A stretch of DNA of 48,148 nt from an uncultured Pseudomonadota bacterium (GTDB lineage Bacteria > Pseudomonadota > Gammaproteobacteria > Steroidobacterales > Steroidobacteraceae): assembly GCA_903862885.1 (NCBI GenBank), contig CAIOZU010000032.1:1-48148 (forward strand), given 5' to 3'. The first letter of the stretch is position 1. Every line of letters begins with the position of its first letter. A program made the position numbers and the translations under genes. The notes below the pieces were generated by a model. It searched no databases and was not told the DNA's origin. It saw only the letters and a program-made list of their open reading frames with translations. Shown in pieces: positions 3,097 to 11,459 of this stretch.

Positions 3097-3483
3097 ATGT
3101 ACAAGTCTGCTTTCTACTCTCGCCTGAGTATCGCCTTATTGCTGTGTCTTACCGGTTGCTCAAGCCAGCCCAAATTGGCCCCGCCCACAGGGGCACCCGC
3201 CGACGTGATCGCGCCAGCCGCTGCTAAAGCCACTGGAGCAGCAGCCGACAACTTGGTTAGCTCAGACACCTATGCAAAGGCACAGGCCTTAGGCTTTCAT
3301 CCACGCGTTCGCGACGGACTGACCGTGTTCTGTCACAACGACGCGGCCATCGGAACTCACTTCAAATCTGAGCGTTGTATCAAACCTGAGACAGTCGATC
3401 TAGAGGTGGAATTGGCCGCGCAGTTGCGGCAAAAGAGTGGCCAAGTGAGGCCCTGCACCGGCGCCAGTTGTGGGACCAACTAA
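3097..3483 (+). CDS. Small predicted lipoprotein
   Basis: A 128-aa protein with a short basic N-terminus, a hydrophobic stretch and a lipobox L18-T19-G20-C21, so it is probably lipidated and anchored in a membrane facing the periplasm. The segment after the lipobox is Pro/Ala-rich. Its folded part contains FCHNDAAIGTHFKSERC, matching a pattern (FCR..A.iGS.....C) seen in other small uncharacterised proteobacterial envelope proteins, and two more Cys near the C-terminus. There is no obvious Shine-Dalgarno. Stands alone between the oxygenase and the MATE gene. Function unknown. Confidence 0.65.
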   Translation: MYKSAFYSRLSIALLLCLTGCSSQPKLAPPTGAPADVIAPAAAKATGAAADNLVSSDTYAKAQALGFHPRVRDGLTVFCHNDAAIGTHFKSERCIKPETVDLEVELAAQLRQKSGQVRPCTGASCGTN

Positions 3484-3645: not shown

Positions 3646-5076
3646 ATGAAATCCACCACAAGTCTCACTGAAGGTTCGATCAGTCGCACGCTGCTTGTCT
3701 TCACGCTTCCCATTTTAATGGGCAACGTCCTGCAGTCCTTAAACGCATCAGTCAATGCGGTTTGGGTGGGGCGGTTCTTGGGTAAAGCGGCGCTCACCGC
3801 CACTTCTAATGCCAATGCCATCCTATTCTTGTTAATGGGCGGCGCGTTCGGGGTATCTTTGGCCGCCACCGTCTTAGTCGCCCAATACACCGGCGCCAAA
3901 CAGCCGGATCAGGCCCGCCGAGTGGTCGGCGCTAGCGCTGCTTTTTTCACTGTAGTGGCTATCAGTTTCAGTGTACTTGGTCTGCTGCTCACTAATTCCC
4001 TACTGGTATCGATCCATACCCCATCTGATGCCTTACCCTTCGCTCGCGATTACTTAAGAGTCATCTTCGTCGCCTTGCCGTTCATCTATCTGAATACCTA
4101 TGTGATGGCGGTGCTACGCGGCGCAGGAGACTCTAAAACACCGTTTAAGTTTTTGGTGCTGGCAGTGTGTCTGGACATTGCTTTAAACCCGCTGCTCATT
4201 TTTGGTTGGGGCCCAATACCGAGGCTAGGTATCACTGGCGCTGCCAGCGCCACGCTCATCGCTAACGTCATCAGTCTTATTGCCCTGATCACGGTCCTCT
4301 ATCGCCGCCATGATCCCTTGTGCCTTAAGGGCCCTGACCTCTCCTTACTACGCTTTGACGGACCCATCATCAGTGCGTTACTGCGCAAGGGACTACCGAT
4401 GGGATTACAAATGGTGGTGATCGCGGCCAATGCGGTCATGATTATCACTCTAGTGAATCCTTTCGGTTCCGACACCACGGCAGCCTATGGTGCTTCTTGG
4501 CAATTATGGAACTATGTGCAAATGCCCGCCCTCGCCTTAGGAGCAGCTGTCTCTGCCATGGCCGCTCAGAACGTGGGTGCAAAACGATGGGATCGGGTCA
4601 AGCGCATTGCTCACGTGGGTATTTTGTTTAGTTTGGTCGCCACAGGGACGGCAGCGTTGGCTCTGATACTTTTTGATGAAGTCGCATTGCGGTGGTTTTT
4701 GCCCTCTGATGAATTGGTGAACATCGCTCGCCACATCAATGTCATCGGCGCGCCCTCATTCGTATTCTTCGGCCTCGCCATGGTGCTGTTTGGCGTAATC
4801 CGCTCAACCGGAGCGGTGATGCCGCCGCTTGTGATTCTAATCGTTTCCCTGTGGGGATTCAGGTTGCCCTTTGCTACGCTACTCATGCCTCGCTTCGGCG
4901 CAGATGCGATCTGGTGGAGCTTCCCGCTGGCGGGGGCTCTGTCGGCACTTTTGGCGATTATGTATTATCACTTTGGTCACTGGCGCCAGGCGCACATGCT
5001 GACCGAAACCCACGCTGCTGACCTCAACCAGCGCCCAGTAACGGTCGCCACATCCGCCGACAGCAAGCCAAGCTGA
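3646..5076 (+). CDS. MATE family efflux transporter
   Basis: A 476-aa multidrug and toxic-compound exporter of the inner membrane, driven by an H+ or Na+ gradient. It begins LTEGSISRTLLVFTLPILMGNVLQSL, the classic MATE N-terminus, and has about 12 hydrophobic segments in two homologous halves; other family marks are VLRGAGDSKTPF near residue 155 and the second-half motif PMGLQMVV near residue 250. No Shine-Dalgarno is visible before the ATG. The next gene on the same strand (metallophosphoesterase) has its own upstream spacing of about 86 bases. Exported compound cannot be read from the sequence. Confidence 0.93.
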   Translation: MKSTTSLTEGSISRTLLVFTLPILMGNVLQSLNASVNAVWVGRFLGKAALTATSNANAILFLLMGGAFGVSLAATVLVAQYTGAKQPDQARRVVGASAAFFTVVAISFSVLGLLLTNSLLVSIHTPSDALPFARDYLRVIFVALPFIYLNTYVMAVLRGAGDSKTPFKFLVLAVCLDIALNPLLIFGWGPIPRLGITGAASATLIANVISLIALITVLYRRHDPLCLKGPDLSLLRFDGPIISALLRKGLPMGLQMVVIAANAVMIITLVNPFGSDTTAAYGASWQLWNYVQMPALALGAAVSAMAAQNVGAKRWDRVKRIAHVGILFSLVATGTAALALILFDEVALRWFLPSDELVNIARHINVIGAPSFVFFGLAMVLFGVIRSTGAVMPPLVILIVSLWGFRLPFATLLMPRFGADAIWWSFPLAGALSALLAIMYYHFGHWRQAHMLTETHAADLNQRPVTVATSADSKPS

Positions 5077-5162
5077 TATTGCTATGCAAAACCAACAGCA
5101 CTCGCCAGACCATTGTCACATCCGCCTGCTACAGTCACGTTATTGTGTATAAATTGACTCCT

Positions 5163-6044
5163 ATGCGCCGCCACCTCCGCTTACTGGTTGCTTTGCTACT
5201 GGCTCTTGGACTCACCCATCCTGCATGGGCTGGTCTCAAGGTGTATGCAGCCGGCGACATCGCTCAGTGTGGCTCTAATCCACAAAACAGCGCGGCCGCG
5301 CACACCGCTGCGTTGATTCCGGATGGAGGAATCGCATTGGTGTTGGGTGATACCACGTATTTGAACGCGGACACAGCCACGCTTAATAGCTGCTATGAAC
5401 CGACTTGGGGTCGGTTTAAAGCCACGAGCTACGTGGTGCCGGGCAACCATGATTATGTGAATGGTGATGTCACCGACTTTTTGACTTACTTCGGCGCGAG
5501 GACACCCAGTAAAACTTGGTTTCGAGCCCCGTTGGGTGAGTCCTGGTGGGTTATTGGTCTCGACAGTAACCTAAAAGAGCCCGCACTCACGCAACAGCAA
5601 GCGTGGCTGATGCATGAACTGACCACCATCAAGGGAGACGGCAAATGCATTGTTGCCCTCTGGCACCACGCGCTGTTCTCCACCGGCCTACACCACGGCG
5701 ACGGCGATTTGATGAAGCCCGCGTGGCGTGCATTGGATGCCGCAGGGGCGGATATGGTGCTCTCCGGGCACGAACACTTTTACGAGTCCTTCGAGCCCTT
5801 AGACGCCAATGGTCATCCGCAGAAAATGGGCATACGGCAGTTTGTGGTGGGCACCGGCGGTGGACAGCTGGCTGATTTATCCTTTCATCTCAACCATCGG
5901 GTCTACACACGTCGGTATGGTGTGCTGCAATTGGACTTAGAATCAGATCATTACAGTTGGGTATTTGAGACCATCAGCCATAAATACCTAGACGCCGGGT
6001 CCGCCCGCTGCCGCAATGCCCCGCGCCTCTCTGGCAGTCATTAA
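5163..6044 (+). CDS. Secreted metallophosphoesterase
   Basis: A 293-aa calcineurin-like phosphoesterase with a Sec signal peptide (hydrophobic segment 7-19, cleavage near AWA|G, residue 23). All metal-site motifs are present: GDIAQCG (D32), LGDTTY (D63), GNHDY (95-97), a WHHALFSTG block and SGHEHFYESF. It resembles the purple-acid-phosphatase/PhoX-unrelated secreted phosphoesterases that act in the periplasm or outside the cell. I prefer the ATG at 5163, which places the signal peptide at the N-terminus; the longer frame from 5079 adds 28 unlikely residues. The bufferin precursor starts only 31 bases downstream on the same strand, so the two may be transcribed together. Confidence 0.9.
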   Translation: MRRHLRLLVALLLALGLTHPAWAGLKVYAAGDIAQCGSNPQNSAAAHTAALIPDGGIALVLGDTTYLNADTATLNSCYEPTWGRFKATSYVVPGNHDYVNGDVTDFLTYFGARTPSKTWFRAPLGESWWVIGLDSNLKEPALTQQQAWLMHELTTIKGDGKCIVALWHHALFSTGLHHGDGDLMKPAWRALDAAGADMVLSGHEHFYESFEPLDANGHPQKMGIRQFVVGTGGGQLADLSFHLNHRVYTRRYGVLQLDLESDHYSWVFETISHKYLDAGSARCRNAPRLSGSH

Positions 6045-6075
6045 TATACTTTTTCGCTCGACTCAGGAGACCCTT

Positions 6076-6342
6076 ATGACCGATACAACCCGAAGCGCCC
6101 CACGAGTGGGCCCGGCCATCGCTAGCGCTGCGGCTTTGTTGTTCACTTCTCTGGTCATACCCACTGTGCATGCCACTGAGGCAAAACTCCAATGCGATGG
6201 CGTCAATGCCTGCAAAGGGACCTCTGCGTGCGGCACCGCCAACAATCACTGCGCCGGACAAAACGCCTGCAAAGGTCAAGGCTGGCTACTGTTAACGCAG
6301 GCTGACTGTGACGCCGCCAAAGAAAAGCTTCGCACGCCCTGA
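6076..6342 (+). CDS. bufA2: BufA2-like periplasmic bufferin precursor (Cys-rich RiPP metallophore)
   Basis: An 88-aa precursor with an N-terminal signal sequence (hydrophobic segment about residues 12-32, probable cleavage after VHA at 33) followed by a short Cys-rich core. Six cysteines (40, 46, 52, 59, 65, 78) are present; two copies of a C-x-G-x-N-A-C-K-G motif start at C40 and C59. Bufferins are ribosomal peptides exported to the periplasm that bind copper after conversion of cysteines to thiooxazole-type heterocycles by an MNIO enzyme; this gene is followed directly by bufB and bufC homologues. AGGAG at 6065-6069 sits 6 nt before the ATG, supporting the start. The stop overlaps the bufB ATG (TGATG). 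Confidence 0.85.
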   Translation: MTDTTRSAPRVGPAIASAAALLFTSLVIPTVHATEAKLQCDGVNACKGTSACGTANNHCAGQNACKGQGWLLLTQADCDAAKEKLRTP

Positions 6343-7202
6343 TGGGTACGCGGCGGATGCCCGCCCCCATCGAAAATCCATTGTCGGGTGTGGGTGTGGG
6401 ACTCAGACCCACGCACTATCAGGCGATTTTAGATAACGCCCCACGCATCGATTGGTTTGAGGCACTCACGGAGAACTACCTCGTGGGTGGCGGTCAACCT
6501 CTCTATTACCTGGATGCAATCGCTGAGCGCTACCCCATTGCACTGCATGGAGTGTCCCTCTCCATCGGGTCTACGGACCCTTTGAATCGAGTCTACCTGC
6601 ACGAGCTGAAGACACTGGCGGCGCGCTGCCGCCCCGCATTGATCTCAGATCACTTATGCTGGACTGGCATCGATGGCATGAATACCCATGACCTACTGCC
6701 ACTCCCTTATCACGAAGAGACACTCAAGCACCTCACGCGCCGCATCCGCCAAGTTCAAGATATTTTAGATCGGCCACTGGTGCTCGAGAATATCTCTCGG
6801 TACGTAAGCTTTTCCGCGTCGACCTTCAGTGAATGGGGCTTTCTAGCGACGCTCACTCGCGAGACGGGCTGCCGCTTGCTATTAGATATTAATAATATCT
6901 ATGTCAACGCACACAACTTTGGATTTTCTGCAACCGACTTTATCGACGGTATCCCAGTCGATGCAGTAGCGCAGTTTCATATCGCTGGTCATAGCGTGCA
7001 ACAGGCACTGCTCATTGACACGCATGATCAACCAGTCAGCCCGCCGGTTTTTAATTTACTGACCCATGCGCTCGCTCGCTTTGGCGCACAGCCCATTTTA
7101 TTAGAACGAGATGATAGCATTCCACCGCTCGATGAGCTGGTCGGTGAACTTGATACCGCTCGACAGCTATTAGCAGCACATCAGTCGAACACATCAGAAT
7201 GA
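6342..7202 (+). CDS. bufB: MNIO-family bufferin maturase (DUF692)
   Basis: A 286-aa TIM-barrel multinuclear non-heme iron-dependent oxidase, the enzyme class that oxidises cysteines of the precursor peptide. Family hallmarks are GVGVGLRPTHY at the N-terminus, FEALTENYL, HGVSLSIGS, ISDHLCW, LVLENISRY, LLLDINNIYVNAHN and FHIAGH, which supply the conserved His, Glu, Asp and Asn iron ligands, and a late LLERDD. Its start codon shares one base with the stop of the precursor gene and its end overlaps bufC by four bases (ATGA), so the three are translationally coupled. It acts in the cytoplasm before peptide export. Confidence 0.93.
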   Translation: MGTRRMPAPIENPLSGVGVGLRPTHYQAILDNAPRIDWFEALTENYLVGGGQPLYYLDAIAERYPIALHGVSLSIGSTDPLNRVYLHELKTLAARCRPALISDHLCWTGIDGMNTHDLLPLPYHEETLKHLTRRIRQVQDILDRPLVLENISRYVSFSASTFSEWGFLATLTRETGCRLLLDINNIYVNAHNFGFSATDFIDGIPVDAVAQFHIAGHSVQQALLIDTHDQPVSPPVFNLLTHALARFGAQPILLERDDSIPPLDELVGELDTARQLLAAHQSNTSE

Positions 7203-7996
7203 CGCTCCACCAATTGCAACGCGACTTCCAGTACGCCTTGATTGAGCGCAATGTGAGCGCACTGCAGGAGTCTACAGCCCTCACCGAGGGCACCGAACTG
7301 GCGCTATCTATTTATCAGCACGCCTATCGGGTGCGACTGCGCGACGCGCTGCGCAGCCACTATCCCATACTGGAGAAGTATCTGGGCCGAATGGCTTTCA
7401 ACGCCTATGTGGATGGATACATCTCACGTTACCCGTCACGATCGGTGTCGCTCACTGACTATGGGGATCAGTTGGCCGCTGATTGTTTGGCGCACTTAAA
7501 CGATGTGGATGTGAATACAGCCTCGGAGCTAGCGGCTTTTGAGTGGTTGCTCGGACGCGCCTTTGGGGCCGCTCAGGGCGCGCCGGTGACGGTGGCACAA
7601 TTGTCTGCCATCAATCCGATTCACTGGGCGGGCCTTCGCTTCACACCGGTACCAAGCGTGAGCCGACACACCGTCACCACCTCAGCCGTTACAATCTGGC
7701 GGCAGCTGAAAATGGCCTCTACCGATACGCACAGTCCGCCAACGGCCGCACCGCCCATCACGCCGGAAACAGCCGACACACCCACACACTGGGTGATCGC
7801 CCGAGTCGACCTTGATGTGCGCTTTCAGTCGATCCCTCGAGAGGAAGCCAGTGCCCTCGACAGAGTCTTATCGGGATCTCCATTCGCCGAGGTCTGTGAG
7901 CCCTTGGCTGCACACCATGGGGAGGAAGCAGCCCGAGTCGCAGCCACCTGGCTTAAAAGGTGGATTGAAGCCGGCTGGCTTGAATTAGTATCATGA
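7199..7996 (+). CDS. bufC: BufC/HvfC-type MNIO partner protein (DUF2063)
   Basis: A 265-aa protein with the DUF2063 N-terminal domain (LHQLQRDFQYALIE, LSIYQHAYRVRLRDALRSHYPILEKYLG, residues 1-70) that recruits precursor peptides to the MNIO enzyme, then a variable C-terminal region (from about residue 165) ending in a small winged-helix-like part (AARVAATWLKRWIEAGWLE). It overlaps bufB by four bases. In characterised systems the pair BufB-BufC is needed for peptide modification. The C-terminal Thr/Pro-rich linker (about 160-190) is longer than I would expect, but no broken frame is seen. Confidence 0.88.
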   Translation: MTLHQLQRDFQYALIERNVSALQESTALTEGTELALSIYQHAYRVRLRDALRSHYPILEKYLGRMAFNAYVDGYISRYPSRSVSLTDYGDQLAADCLAHLNDVDVNTASELAAFEWLLGRAFGAAQGAPVTVAQLSAINPIHWAGLRFTPVPSVSRHTVTTSAVTIWRQLKMASTDTHSPPTAAPPITPETADTPTHWVIARVDLDVRFQSIPREEASALDRVLSGSPFAEVCEPLAAHHGEEAARVAATWLKRWIEAGWLELVS

Positions 7997-8024
7997 CGAT
8001 CCACCTAAATAAAGGAGGTTGGCC

Positions 8025-10214
8025 GTGCGGATGTCACACACACCCAAATGCCTTGAGCTCATTTTAGTCACTATTTTTTTGAGTCTTGTTATGCCACTGA
8101 GCACCGCCGCCACGTCCACCCCTCCTTCAGAAAATGCCTTGCTACGTTCGTGGGTGGGGCCTTACGGCGGCGTGCCCCCCTTCGATCAAATCAAAGTGGC
8201 TGACTTCCCAGCCGCTTTCACTGTCGGCATGCAAGAGCAACTGACAGAGATTGAGCACATCGCCAAAGACCACGCGCCGGCACGCTTTGACAACACCATT
8301 GCGGCATTAGAGCGCTCCGGTCGCACCTTAGATCGCGTCTCACGGCTCTTTGGTATTTATGGCTCCACACTCAAAGACGAGCAGGTTCAAGCCATCGAAG
8401 CCGACTGGGCGCCAAAGCTTGCCAAACAGTCTGACCTCATCACCCAGAATACGGCACTTTTTAGGCGCGTCGCCGCGGTGTATGCCGCTCGCGAACGCAG
8501 TCATCTGACCGCAGAACAGCAGCGTCTGACGTGGGTGGTTTACACCCACTTCGTACGGGCCGGCGCACAGCTTGATGGAGCGGCTAAAGAGAAGCTGTCG
8601 GCGCTAAATCAGTCATTGGCCAGCCTGTATACGCAGTTTAGTCAGCGCCTCTTAAATGATGAGAATGAACACTGGCTGCCTTTAAAAACGGAAGCAGATT
8701 TTGCCGGTCTACCAGACTCTGTGCGGGAGGGCTTGATCGCGGGCGCACAGGCACGCGGCATTGACGCATTGGGCGCTGTATTAAATACGCGCTCCAGTGT
8801 AGAGCCGTTTCTGGAGTACTCCTCTCGGCGTGATCTTCGAGAAACGGTGTGGCGTACTTTTATCAGCCGGGGTGATCAAGCAGATAAAAATGGCACCAAA
8901 GAGATCATCACTGAGATCCTTTCGCTGCGCGCTCAACGCGCGAAACTGTTGGGTTTTAAAACACACGCCCATTGGCGACTTGAAGACTCCATGGCAAAGA
9001 CACCAGAGCGCGCCATGGCACTCATGGAGGCTGTCTGGCCGTCCGCTGTTGCCCGCGTGCATGAAGAAGTCGCTGATATGCAGGTGCTGGCGGATCAAGA
9101 CAGTGTGCAAAGCAATACACCGACTAGCCGCCTAGAAGCATGGGATTATCGCTACTACGCCGAGAAAGTTCGCAAGCAAAAATATGATCTCGATTCCAAT
9201 GAGGTAAAGCCGTACTTACAGCTAGAAAAGCTACGAGAGGGCATGTTCTGGGTAGCGGGCCAGTTGTTTGGCTTTTATTTTAAAGAGGTGCCAGCCGGAC
9301 AAGTCCCCGTCGCCCACCCCGATATACGAGTGTTTGAGGTCACTGATGCGGCCCAGCAACACATCGGTCTGTGGTACTTCGATCCCTATGCGCGACCTAA
9401 TAAGGAATCCGGCGCATGGATGAACGAATATCGTTCACAGGAACGCTTCGACGGCGCGATCACTACCATCGTCTCGAATAATTCCAATTTTGTAAAAGGC
9501 AAACCAGGCGATCCCGTTCTGATCAGCTGGGAAGATGCTACGACGTTGTTCCACGAATTTGGTCATGCATTACACGGGTTATCATCCCACGTGACCTATC
9601 CGACATTAGCCGGCACCTCCGTTGCTCGTGACTATGTGGAATTTCCGTCGCAGTTGCTAGAGCATTGGCTCTCCACACCGGAGGTGCTCAATCACTTTGC
9701 ATTACATGTTGACACCGGGCAACCTATGCCAGTGAGCCTGGTTCAGAAGATCCACAATGCCTCGACCTTCAATCAAGGATTTAAGACGGTCGAATACTTA
9801 TCAAGCGCGCTGATTGATATGAAGCTCCATTTGGCGGGTGACATTCGCATTGACCCCACCACCTTTGAAGCGAGCACCCTGACAGCACTCGGCATGCCCA
9901 GAGAGATGGTGATGCGCCATCGCACCCCTCAATTCGGTCATATATTTTCAAGTGATGGCTACTCAGCGGGTTACTACAGCTACCTCTGGGCAGATACCTT
10001 ATCGGCCGATGCCTGGGAGGCTTTCGTGGAAGCCGGTGGCGCTTATGACCCCGCGGTGGCCAAACGACTCCGCGAGCACGTGTTTATGATTGGCAACACG
10101 GTGGATCCGGCGGATGCTTATCGAGCCTTTCGCGGACGAGATCCAGGAACCGACGCCTTAATGCGCCAACGGGGATTCCCGGTGACAGCGGATCGGTCTG
10201 CTGCAATAAAGTAA
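8025..10214 (+). CDS. dcp: Exported M3 family peptidyl-dipeptidase (Dcp-like)
   Basis: A 729-aa zinc metallopeptidase of family M3. The zinc motif HEFGHALH lies at about residue 510, with the downstream Glu helix and FSSDGYSAGYYSYLWAD near the C-terminus, as in Dcp and oligopeptidase A. It removes dipeptides from, or cleaves, short peptides. A signal peptide (hydrophobic segment about 11-27, cleavage near STA|A) places it in the periplasm, unlike cytoplasmic E. coli OpdA. The start is decided by a full AAAGGAGG (8011-8018) 6 nt before the GTG at 8025; TTG 8019 and ATG 8031 are less well spaced. It begins 28 bases after bufC on the same strand. Confidence 0.92.
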   Translation: MRMSHTPKCLELILVTIFLSLVMPLSTAATSTPPSENALLRSWVGPYGGVPPFDQIKVADFPAAFTVGMQEQLTEIEHIAKDHAPARFDNTIAALERSGRTLDRVSRLFGIYGSTLKDEQVQAIEADWAPKLAKQSDLITQNTALFRRVAAVYAARERSHLTAEQQRLTWVVYTHFVRAGAQLDGAAKEKLSALNQSLASLYTQFSQRLLNDENEHWLPLKTEADFAGLPDSVREGLIAGAQARGIDALGAVLNTRSSVEPFLEYSSRRDLRETVWRTFISRGDQADKNGTKEIITEILSLRAQRAKLLGFKTHAHWRLEDSMAKTPERAMALMEAVWPSAVARVHEEVADMQVLADQDSVQSNTPTSRLEAWDYRYYAEKVRKQKYDLDSNEVKPYLQLEKLREGMFWVAGQLFGFYFKEVPAGQVPVAHPDIRVFEVTDAAQQHIGLWYFDPYARPNKESGAWMNEYRSQERFDGAITTIVSNNSNFVKGKPGDPVLISWEDATTLFHEFGHALHGLSSHVTYPTLAGTSVARDYVEFPSQLLEHWLSTPEVLNHFALHVDTGQPMPVSLVQKIHNASTFNQGFKTVEYLSSALIDMKLHLAGDIRIDPTTFEASTLTALGMPREMVMRHRTPQFGHIFSSDGYSAGYYSYLWADTLSADAWEAFVEAGGAYDPAVAKRLREHVFMIGNTVDPADAYRAFRGRDPGTDALMRQRGFPVTADRSAAIK

Positions 10215-10256
10215 GCGGTGCGGCGTTAGCGGGCCGATTAAGACGAGCGGCGTGGC

Positions 10257-11459
10257 TCAGTACAGCCATGCCCCTGCCCATTCCTCCCGCCATGCCCGCT
10301 CATCATGCGATGTCATTAACTCCAGATCCCGTGGCGTGGCATTAGAGTCATCCACCCACTCTCGCAGCCAAGGGCCGCCGTTGATCACATCGATGGCCAA
10401 GCGCCCTTGCACATACTCATAAGGGAAATCACGCCACAGCGGGTAATCCGATCGCAAGGCTCGCAGCGCCTTAAAAGCCACTGCCATTAAGCGCCACGGC
10501 TTGAATGTCTGATGACCATACGCGCCATCATCTAAATGAATCTGCAAGCCGTTACACAGCTGCCCCACATGCTTATGAACGGTGGGCTCAAACCAGCACG
10601 GTCTTAAACGGCAGCCAGTCAGCCACTCAGGCGCCAGTCGGTGCATCTGTTCAAGCCATTCGTGTGCATCCACATCGGGTGCACCAAATAACTCCAACGG
10701 TCGAGTGGTACCCCGCCCCTCAGAGAGGGTAGTGCCCTCCAAAAGCACCGTCCCAGAGTAGGCGCGCGCCATGGAGAGTGAGGCGGCATTGGGACTTGGG
10801 TTAACCCACGCCCGCTCACCCAAGGGCCATCCAAAGCCTGGCCCCTCGTCGGGCAACCAACCGCGCAGGGGAACGACGTCATAATCAACCTGCAGGGCAA
10901 GCTCACGAATGAACCAGTGCCCCGCCTCGCCTAGCGTGAGGCCATGACGCATAGGGAAACGTCCGGCCCCCACGAAACTCTCGTAGCCTGCCTGCAGAGC
11001 CAACCCCTCCACAATCCGGCCGGCCGGATTGGGCCGATCGAGCACCCACACGGTTTTGCCGTGTTTGGCGGCAGCCTCCAACAGATAGCGCAGAGTAGTT
11101 AAAAAAGTATAGATGCGACAACCCAGATCCTGCAGATCGATCAGCAAGACATCAAAACTGTCCATCATCTCGTCCGTGGGCTGACGCACGTCGCCGTACA
11201 GACTAAACACCGGGATACCCAAGCGAGGATCCAGATAGTCCAAAGACTCCACCATATTGTCTTGCTTGTCGCCACGCAGCCCATGCTGTGGACCAAACGC
11301 GGCGGTGAGGGTGATATCCGCAGCCAGCGCCAGCGCATCCATCGCGTGCGTCAACTCTTTGGTTACCGAGGCGGGATGGGCAAGCAAGGCCACCCGACAC
11401 CCTGATAGGCGTCGACGTCGCACCGGATCTGCCAGCAGCTGATCAATCCCAAAATCCAT
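10257..11459 (-). CDS. namZ: NamZ-type exo-beta-N-acetylmuramidase (DUF1343)
   Basis: A 400-aa DUF1343 protein. Members of this family remove terminal MurNAc from muropeptide or peptidoglycan-derived sugars. Motifs seen are GIDQLL, VALLAHPASV, FGPQHGLRGDKQDNM, IPVFSLYG, DVLLIDLQDLGCRIYT, VLDRPNPAGR, EGTTLSEGRGTTRPLELFGAP and a C-terminal DLFEYV-like FPYEYV segment, all in family order. No signal peptide is visible, so it would act in the cytoplasm, whereas many known members are exported. AGGA lies 8 nt upstream of the ATG. It follows the DOMON-like gene on the same strand by 11 bases, suggesting one transcript with alkB and fba. Confidence 0.9.
   Translation of the reverse strand: MDFGIDQLLADPVRRRRLSGCRVALLAHPASVTKELTHAMDALALAADITLTAAFGPQHGLRGDKQDNMVESLDYLDPRLGIPVFSLYGDVRQPTDEMMDSFDVLLIDLQDLGCRIYTFLTTLRYLLEAAAKHGKTVWVLDRPNPAGRIVEGLALQAGYESFVGAGRFPMRHGLTLGEAGHWFIRELALQVDYDVVPLRGWLPDEGPGFGWPLGERAWVNPSPNAASLSMARAYSGTVLLEGTTLSEGRGTTRPLELFGAPDVDAHEWLEQMHRLAPEWLTGCRLRPCWFEPTVHKHVGQLCNGLQIHLDDGAYGHQTFKPWRLMAVAFKALRALRSDYPLWRDFPYEYVQGRLAIDVINGGPWLREWVDDSNATPRDLELMTSHDERAWREEWAGAWLY

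What the first reader, a model, noticed from the sequence alone, without database searches (positions are those of the whole stretch)
5163..10214. Bufferin operon flanked by secreted phosphoesterase and peptidyl-dipeptidase
Seen: BufA2-like precursor, MNIO maturase and DUF2063 partner in a tightly coupled array (TGATG and ATGA overlaps). A signal-peptide metallophosphoesterase lies 31 bases upstream and an exported M3 peptidase with a strong Shine-Dalgarno 28 bases downstream, all on one strand. Known: MNIO/BufC pairs make copper-binding thiooxazole peptides. Inferred: the two flanking enzymes could belong to the system, e.g. processing or recycling of the peptide or serving metal or phosphate needs in the periplasm. 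This extended five-gene layout may not have been described.
Basis: partly seen in the sequence, partly recalled or inferred. Interest (0 to 1): 0.75.

Follow-up and report, generated by a model that had tools for sequence, protein, structure and literature searches.

The report
Bufferin-2 copper-peptide operon with genus-level neighbours
The stretch holds an ordinary three-gene cluster for a modified, probably copper-binding peptide; a peptidase gene rides along behind it in its close relatives only, the phosphoesterase looks like a bystander, and most close relatives carry a likely dedicated regulatory switch at the cluster that this genome lacks.

Summary
BufA2 (6076-6342), MNIO maturase BufB (6342-7202) and DUF2063 partner BufC (7199-7996) overlap as described, a metallophosphoesterase (MPE) lies 31 bases upstream, an M3 peptidase 28 bases downstream. 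The core is a Buf2 bufferin cluster. The "five-gene system" is only partly supported. M3 follows bufC in 10 of the 11 genus genomes with this BufB (gaps 28-37 bases), so co-transcription is likely, but three congeners keep M3 in place with no bufferin beside it, and none of 52 assessable bufferin loci outside the genus has it. MPE fares worse: in five of the seven congeners (window included) that have it, a divergent ECF sigma/DUF3379 anti-sigma pair separates it from the operon; only the window genome and its closest relative have MPE without the pair, so their MPE-bufA contact looks derived. The unexpected result is that pair: GTAAnAA-N13-CCGGTCT precedes sigma and the bufferin operon, and some distant bufA2 genes. 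Exact genus matches fall only in the sigma/bufferin spacer (10 of 10; control 0). The motif scores high in 14 of 15 Buf2 genomes with this sigma and 0 of 5 without, the window's included. A sigma/DUF3379 Buf2 regulon differs from the published sigma-F/NrsF/Buf1 one.

The parts
5163..6044 (+). Metallophosphoesterase (MPE) with signal-peptide-like N-terminus (by eye); neighbour, probably not part of the bufferin system
   Evidence: PF00149 3.6e-10; D32, D63, N95, H96, H168, H203, H205 among the residues invariant in 10 homologues; their role as metal ligands is recalled
6076..6342 (+). bufA2: bufferin-2 precursor, signal-peptide-like N-terminus and six Cys (by eye)
   Evidence: NF050166 81.1 bits, cut-off 60
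6342..7202 (+). bufB: MNIO maturase
   Evidence: NF050167 359.8 bits, cut-off 310; PF05114 1.3e-105
7199..7996 (+). bufC: DUF2063 partner protein (PME type 1)
   Evidence: PF09836 4.2e-17
8025..10214 (+). M3 peptidase, Dcp-like, GTG start behind AAAGGAGGT, HEFGH motif; presumed last gene of the transcript
   Evidence: PF01432 3.5e-114; 28-37 base gap to bufC in 10 of 10 genus genomes that have both, window included
3646..5076 (+). MATE transporter; neighbour to the left, directly left of M3 in congener G002
   Evidence: TIGR00797 240.3 bits; L109 layout
10257..11459 (-). NamZ-type exo-muramidase; backbone gene right of M3
   Evidence: PF07075, PF20732; beside M3 in G002, G007, G014, which have no bufferin there

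Best explanation
The core is a standard Buf2 bufferin cluster: BufB with BufC oxidises Cys residues of the precursor BufA2 (inferred from characterised relatives, to thiooxazoles), the product goes to the periplasm and binds excess copper (inferred). It sits in a chromosomal block of this genus ending in M3 and NamZ. M3 is a resident of that block that stands, in the genus, right behind bufC and is probably co-transcribed (inferred from spacing); a role in trimming or recycling the peptide is unproven. MPE is a neighbour. The most complete layout in the genus is MPE> <DUF3379 <sigma | DoxX> bufA> bufB> bufC> M3>; the lineage of the window and G004 probably lost sigma, anti-sigma, DoxX and the sigma-type promoter, which brought bufA to within 28-31 bases of MPE, so that the operon is probably read here from a promoter at or before MPE (inferred). 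In relatives the ECF sigma factor, held by the DUF3379 anti-sigma protein, very likely drives its own gene, the bufferin operon and some bufA2 genes at other loci through GTAAnAA-N13-CCGGTCT. Shown: gene identities, layouts, the motif and its co-occurrence with sigma. Inferred: transcription, the signal (copper or thiol stress), the chemistry, the order of losses.
For: Families. Genus layouts. Polarity: MPE-DUF3379-sigma in the same order, without BufB on the contig stretch held, outside the genus (L091 of G046 and L134). Three congeners with M3 beside NamZ and no bufferin there: G002 (MATE-M3-NamZ), G007, G014; the M3 tree puts G002 as sister of G000+G004 inside the genus (96/97), which suggests loss of the operon with M3 kept. 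Motif: exact matches 10 in 7 of 15 genus genomes, all in the sigma/bufferin spacer, reversed control 0; 25 in 150 family genomes (genus members included), control 2, of which 17 lie within 1.5 kb of a sigma or bufferin-precursor hit. Matrix score >= 14 before the bufferin operon or a distant bufA2 in 14 of 15 Buf2 genomes with the sigma and in 0 of 5 without (G000, G004, G005, G021, G033; best 4.3). No sigma (E <= 1e-40) or DUF3379 (E <= 1e-5) hit in G000, G004, G005. The bufA2 genes of G003 and G008 stand on other contigs, each with the motif about 90 bases upstream.
Against: M3 adjacency is so regular in the genus (10 of 11) that a functional link cannot be excluded; against co-transcription, the one sigma-70-like site found in 4900-10400 lies at 7965-7994, just before M3 (weak, fewer sites than in shuffles). 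Of the 20 genomes in the sigma/motif count, 7 gave training sites to the matrix (6 the very operon sites counted; G003 only its sigma site), and the genomes are related, so the counts are not independent. G019 has the sigma and scores only 6.3; the bufB promoter of G003 has no good site (7.6); two more bufA2 copies of G001 score 8.9 and 0.5. Outside the genus only 8 of 16 exact family matches are near a sigma or bufferin hit. The looser order-wide pattern was common in pattern and control alike; only its place near sigma or BufB in some genomes speaks for it. None of 15 further sigma loci fetched (L152-L166) holds a bufferin gene. G013's contig ends inside DUF3379 and G008's inside bufC, so these layouts are incomplete or pieced from two contigs. 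Sigma absence means absence at the stated thresholds in draft genomes (G021 is 74% complete). No expression data.
Confidence: 0.76

Rival explanations
1. M3 peptidase is a working part of the genus's bufferin system: a periplasmic peptidyl-dipeptidase that trims or recycles the leader or the spent copper peptide, co-expressed with it.
For: Same-strand position 28-37 bases behind bufC in 10 of 10 genus genomes with both genes; signal-peptide-like N-terminus and HEFGH motif (by eye); no sigma-type motif of its own before M3 in 7 tested, so it could share the upstream promoter.
Against: M3 stays in place with no bufferin beside it in G002, G007, G014; G003 has bufB-bufC without it; 16 of 16 fetched M3 regions of other genera hold no BufB, some cut short by contig ends; 0 of 52 assessable bufferin loci outside the genus hold it.
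Confidence: 0.2
2. MPE and the bufferin genes form one functional unit, e.g. supplying phosphate or metal in the periplasm, with MPE the first gene of the operon.
For: 31-base gap in the window and 28 in G004, whose MPE is 85% identical; MPE near bufB in 7 of 11 genus genomes with the Buf2-type BufB.
Against: Sigma/DUF3379 pair on the other strand between MPE and operon in five of the seven; MPE absent from 4 of 11; found without BufB at L131, L132, L134, L136 and at the loci of G033, G046, G052; no good sigma-type site before MPE in 5 sigma-bearing relatives (best 5.1).
Confidence: 0.07
3. The sigma/DUF3379 pair is only a chromosomal neighbour and the shared motif is a binding site of another regulator.
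For: The pair occurs away from bufferins at 15 of 15 further loci fetched; sigma is not adjacent to the operon in G016, G019, G027, G046.
Against: The motif lies before sigma itself and before bufferin genes even when the two are on different contigs (G027, G046; distant bufA2 of G003, G008), has a two-box form with fixed spacing as in ECF promoters, and is missing in 5 of 5 Buf2 genomes without the sigma.
Confidence: 0.12

Closest known systems
Buf2 (Buf_6/12Cys) bufferin clusters
   Same: Six-Cys precursor with signal-peptide-like start, MNIO, DUF2063 partner; DoxX in relatives (PMC12452194, sections 14 and 18 and passages seen; own)
   Different: DoxX missing in the window; M3 peptidase attached in the genus; [quoted passage not shown]
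Caulobacter sigma-F / NrsF / Buf1 regulon (CC3252-CC3257, CC2905-CC2907)
   Same: ECF sigma and its negative regulator next to a bufferin operon, same promoter type before both, a second precursor operon elsewhere in the regulon (PMC3511200, passages seen)
   Different: Anti-sigma is DUF3379 with an HxxxCxxC element, not NrsF (DUF1109 in that paper); precursor is Buf2; promoter GTAAnAA-N13-CCGGTCT rather than GTAACC-N16-CGAA
C. metallidurans rpoQ beside the gig operon
   Same: Sigma and anti-sigma genes near a bufferin operon (PMC13192273, one passage seen)
   Different: Relation of that anti-sigma to DUF3379 not tested
Peptidyl-dipeptidase Dcp (M3)
   Same: Full-length match, NF007624 567.6 bits; PDB relatives 5l43 and 1y79
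   Different: Below NCBIfam's cut-off of 944 bits; exported-looking (by eye)

Membership tests
Buf2 bufferin cluster | Buf2 precursor over family cut-off, signal peptide, six Cys | tested here: met
   NF050166 81.1 against 60; Cys and signal peptide by eye only
Buf2 bufferin cluster | MNIO maturase over cut-off | tested here: met
   NF050167 359.8 against 310
Buf2 bufferin cluster | DUF2063 partner directly after the MNIO gene | tested here: met
   PF09836 62.6 against 27.2, ATGA overlap
Buf2 bufferin cluster | DoxX gene (frequent, not obligatory) | tested here: not met
   None of the 8 main ORFs of 3097-11459 matches DoxX. In relatives: DoxX PF07681 53.6 bits against 23.6 for G011; similar ORFs by eye in four more
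Buf2 bufferin cluster | Thiooxazole formation, copper binding | not testable with these tools
   Needs mass spectrometry and metal binding
Sigma-F/NrsF-type bufferin regulon | ECF sigma and anti-sigma with the bufferin, window genome | tested here: not met
   No hit in G000 to the relatives' sigma (E <= 1e-40) or DUF3379 (E <= 1e-5); NrsF itself was not searched in G000
Sigma-F/NrsF-type bufferin regulon | Anti-sigma of NrsF type, relatives | tested here: not met
   Two proteins tested: PF11859 DUF3379, 66.7 and 89.6 bits against 33.2; no NrsF match
Sigma-F/NrsF-type bufferin regulon | Promoter shared by sigma and bufferin operon, relatives | tested here: met
   Same motif facing both ways in the spacer, other sequence than sigma-F's
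M3 peptidase | M3 domain with HExxH | tested here: met
   PF01432 383 bits; HEFGH
Dcp equivalog | NCBIfam cut-off | tested here: not met
   567.6 against 944

The most novel reading that the evidence does not exclude
A previously undescribed bufferin regulon: an ECF sigma factor with a DUF3379 anti-sigma protein, whose conserved presumed-periplasmic Cys and VPH residues could sense copper or thiol stress, switches on Buf2 (and in other genera Buf1) genes at one or several loci through GTAAnAA-N13-CCGGTCT, with an M3 peptidase as operon-borne processing or recycling enzyme in one genus; the window lineage has dropped the switch and runs the peptide from another promoter.
Probability: 0.4. Interest if true: 0.6.

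Novelty: new variant of a known kind. Interest (0 to 1): 0.42.

Why it matters
The five-gene idea as given is mostly local gene order, which is useful to know before anyone assigns peptide processing to these enzymes. The comparison, however, gives a testable promoter and regulator for Buf2 bufferins, where a recent survey found no sigma factor (PMC12452194, section 14), and a likely function for DUF3379, a domain that Pfam lists as unknown; it also suggests how single bufA2 genes are tied to maturases at other loci, a point that survey leaves open.

Tried and rejected
Considered that MPE, M3 and bufferin are one conserved system: rejected by loci outside the genus and by G002, G007, G014. Considered that MPE belongs to the sigma regulon: no good site before MPE in 5 sigma-bearing relatives (best 5.1). 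Consensus scan of 4900-10400: one sigma-70-like site, 7965-7994 just before M3, against a mean of 3.4 in shuffles; 12 terminator-like sites against a mean of 4.2, which is an excess, but by position all 12 lie inside genes and none in the two gaps, so I drew nothing from it. MPE has no PDB sequence relative at E <= 0.001, so no closer function. Motif patterns had wrong or loose spacing and were replaced. The greedy ORF caller gives spurious antisense ORFs in G+C-rich relatives; layouts rest on the tblastn tables. The DoxX query was out of frame, so its DOXX rows are meaningless and unused; DoxX was tested properly. The order-wide loose pattern was too common, in the control too, to count.

Literature: all in the open-licence PMC library only; DUF3379 gave 0 papers. 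PMC12452194: abstract, sections 14 and 18, and passages; PMC13097082, PMC12538549, PMC13192273, PMC3511200: passages only. Supplements were not available.
Full report
What is there. BufA2 and BufB pass their NCBIfam cut-offs, BufC carries DUF2063, the upstream gene is a calcineurin-like phosphoesterase and the downstream one an M3 peptidase. The window is contig C32 of a 2.79 Mb genome; equal contig lengths tie several relatives to uncultured proteobacterial MAGs, e.g. G004 to VK_bin-4049.

Conservation of the flanks. I searched 98 genomes (the window's own and relatives) for BufB, MPE and M3 and read 75 fetched loci with BufB besides the window, 13 of the genus and 62 of others (a few partial BufB hits were not fetched). 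In the 15-genome genus, 11 genomes have the close, Buf2-type BufB (58% identity or more): G000, 1, 3, 4, 5, 6, 8, 9, 11, 12, 13; G007, 10 and 14 have a more distant BufB (43-45%) and G002 none. M3 follows bufC in 10 of the 11 (G008 by a second contig, L112), at 28-37 bases with the start codon that I judged likeliest; G003 lacks it there. MPE stands upstream in 7 of 11 (G000, 1, 3, 4, 8, 11, 12) and is not found in G005, 6, 9, 13 (G013 is 83% complete). Outside the genus MPE occurs at 0 of 49 BufB loci with at least 3 kb upstream and M3 at 0 of 52 with at least 4 kb downstream (21 of 62 loci fail one or both limits). Only 9 of those 62 loci have a clear BufA2-like precursor; for these it is 0 of 8 and 0 of 8. 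The 16 fetched M3 regions of other genera show no BufB, some being cut short.

M3 without bufferin. In G002 the order is MATE, M3, NamZ with no gene between MATE and M3; in G007 and G014 M3 lies by NamZ, with no MATE or bufferin in the fetched stretch, their distant BufB being elsewhere (L087, L090). The M3 tree puts G002 as sister to G000+G004 (96/97) within the genus, deeper forks open. So M3 is a backbone gene that the operon abuts, and probably stayed behind when the operon was lost.

MPE. In G001, 3, 8, 11 and 12 a DUF3379 gene and an ECF sigma gene, on the strand opposite to the operon, lie between MPE and the operon (families of the G012 pair). The same MPE-DUF3379-sigma order occurs outside the genus with no BufB on the stretch held (L091 of G046, L134). 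The pair is thus probably the older state, and its loss in the lineage of G000 and G004 brought MPE to 31 and 28 bases from bufA. Five further MPE loci (L131, L132, L136, L092, L093) show no bufferin or sigma hit.

The lost switch. In G001, 6, 9, 11 and 13 the stretch after sigma holds a DoxX-like ORF (PF07681 confirmed for G011) and a six-Cys BufA2; in G003, 8 and 12 bufB comes next and no six-Cys ORF is present. Those three have BufA2 on another contig (partial in G012). The spacers share GTAAnAA-N13-CCGGTCT facing sigma, the operon or both. Exact matches in 15 genus genomes: 10, all in this spacer; reversed control 0. In 150 family genomes: 25, control 2; 17 of 25 are within 1.5 kb of a sigma or bufferin-precursor hit and 8 are not; leaving out the 9 genus sites it is 8 of 16. 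Two of them precede Buf1 precursors, in G025 and G042 (PF10048). A matrix from 12 genus sites scores at least 14 before the operon or a distant bufA2 in 14 of 15 Buf2 genomes with sigma, and at most 4.3 in the five without (sigma). Of the 14, the counted sites of G009, 16, 27, 28, 46, 47, 56 and the distant bufA2 of G003 were not in training; neither were the further distant bufA2 of G008 (19.9) and G001 C82 (18.8). G019 is the miss (6.3), the bufB promoter of G003 scores 7.6, and two bufA2 copies of G001 on C128 score 8.9 and 0.5. The window scores -0.5 before bufA and -3.8 before MPE. G005 lacks pair and site too.

How it probably works. By analogy with Caulobacter sigma-F and NrsF (PMC3511200 passages), DUF3379 would hold sigma until a periplasmic signal releases it. 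An alignment of 16 DUF3379 sequences has, in 15 or more rows, the His and two Cys of an HxxxCxxC element and, after a hydrophobic stretch (by eye), a Cys and a VPH, fit for metal or thiol sensing; this is inference. [quoted passage not shown] these loci are Buf2 and use another anti-sigma family. I found no paper on DUF3379 in the library searched.

Verdict. Core: known kind. Five-gene layout: M3 partly, MPE not. The sigma/DUF3379 regulon is the new element, seen in relatives and missing here.

Noticed in passing
L054, L055, L059 (G003, G012, G008): bufB-bufC without any six-Cys precursor ORF between sigma and bufB; BufA2 lies on another contig, with the sigma-type motif about 90 bases upstream in G003 and G008 (G012's copy is cut by a contig end).
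   Followed up: yes
L101 and L041 (G074, G062): The motif stands 83 and 60 bases before a BufB homologue with no evident precursor between, in other families of the order.
   Followed up: partly
L081, L076 (G025, G042): The motif precedes Buf1-type (DUF2282) precursors; in G025 a sigma/DUF3379 pair lies just downstream of the cluster.
   Followed up: partly
L152, L153, L155-L158, L160, L165: Sigma/DUF3379 pairs without a bufferin lie within about 6 kb of a distant M3 homologue (29-33% identity, perhaps oligopeptidase A), in eight genomes.
   Followed up: no
window 3646-5076: MATE transporter with a weak match to the methanobactin exporter MbnM (2.9e-05); best matches are general MATE families.
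   Followed up: no
window 3097-3483: Small lipoprotein-like ORF (by eye) with no Pfam or NCBIfam match and no tblastn hit in the loci.
   Followed up: no
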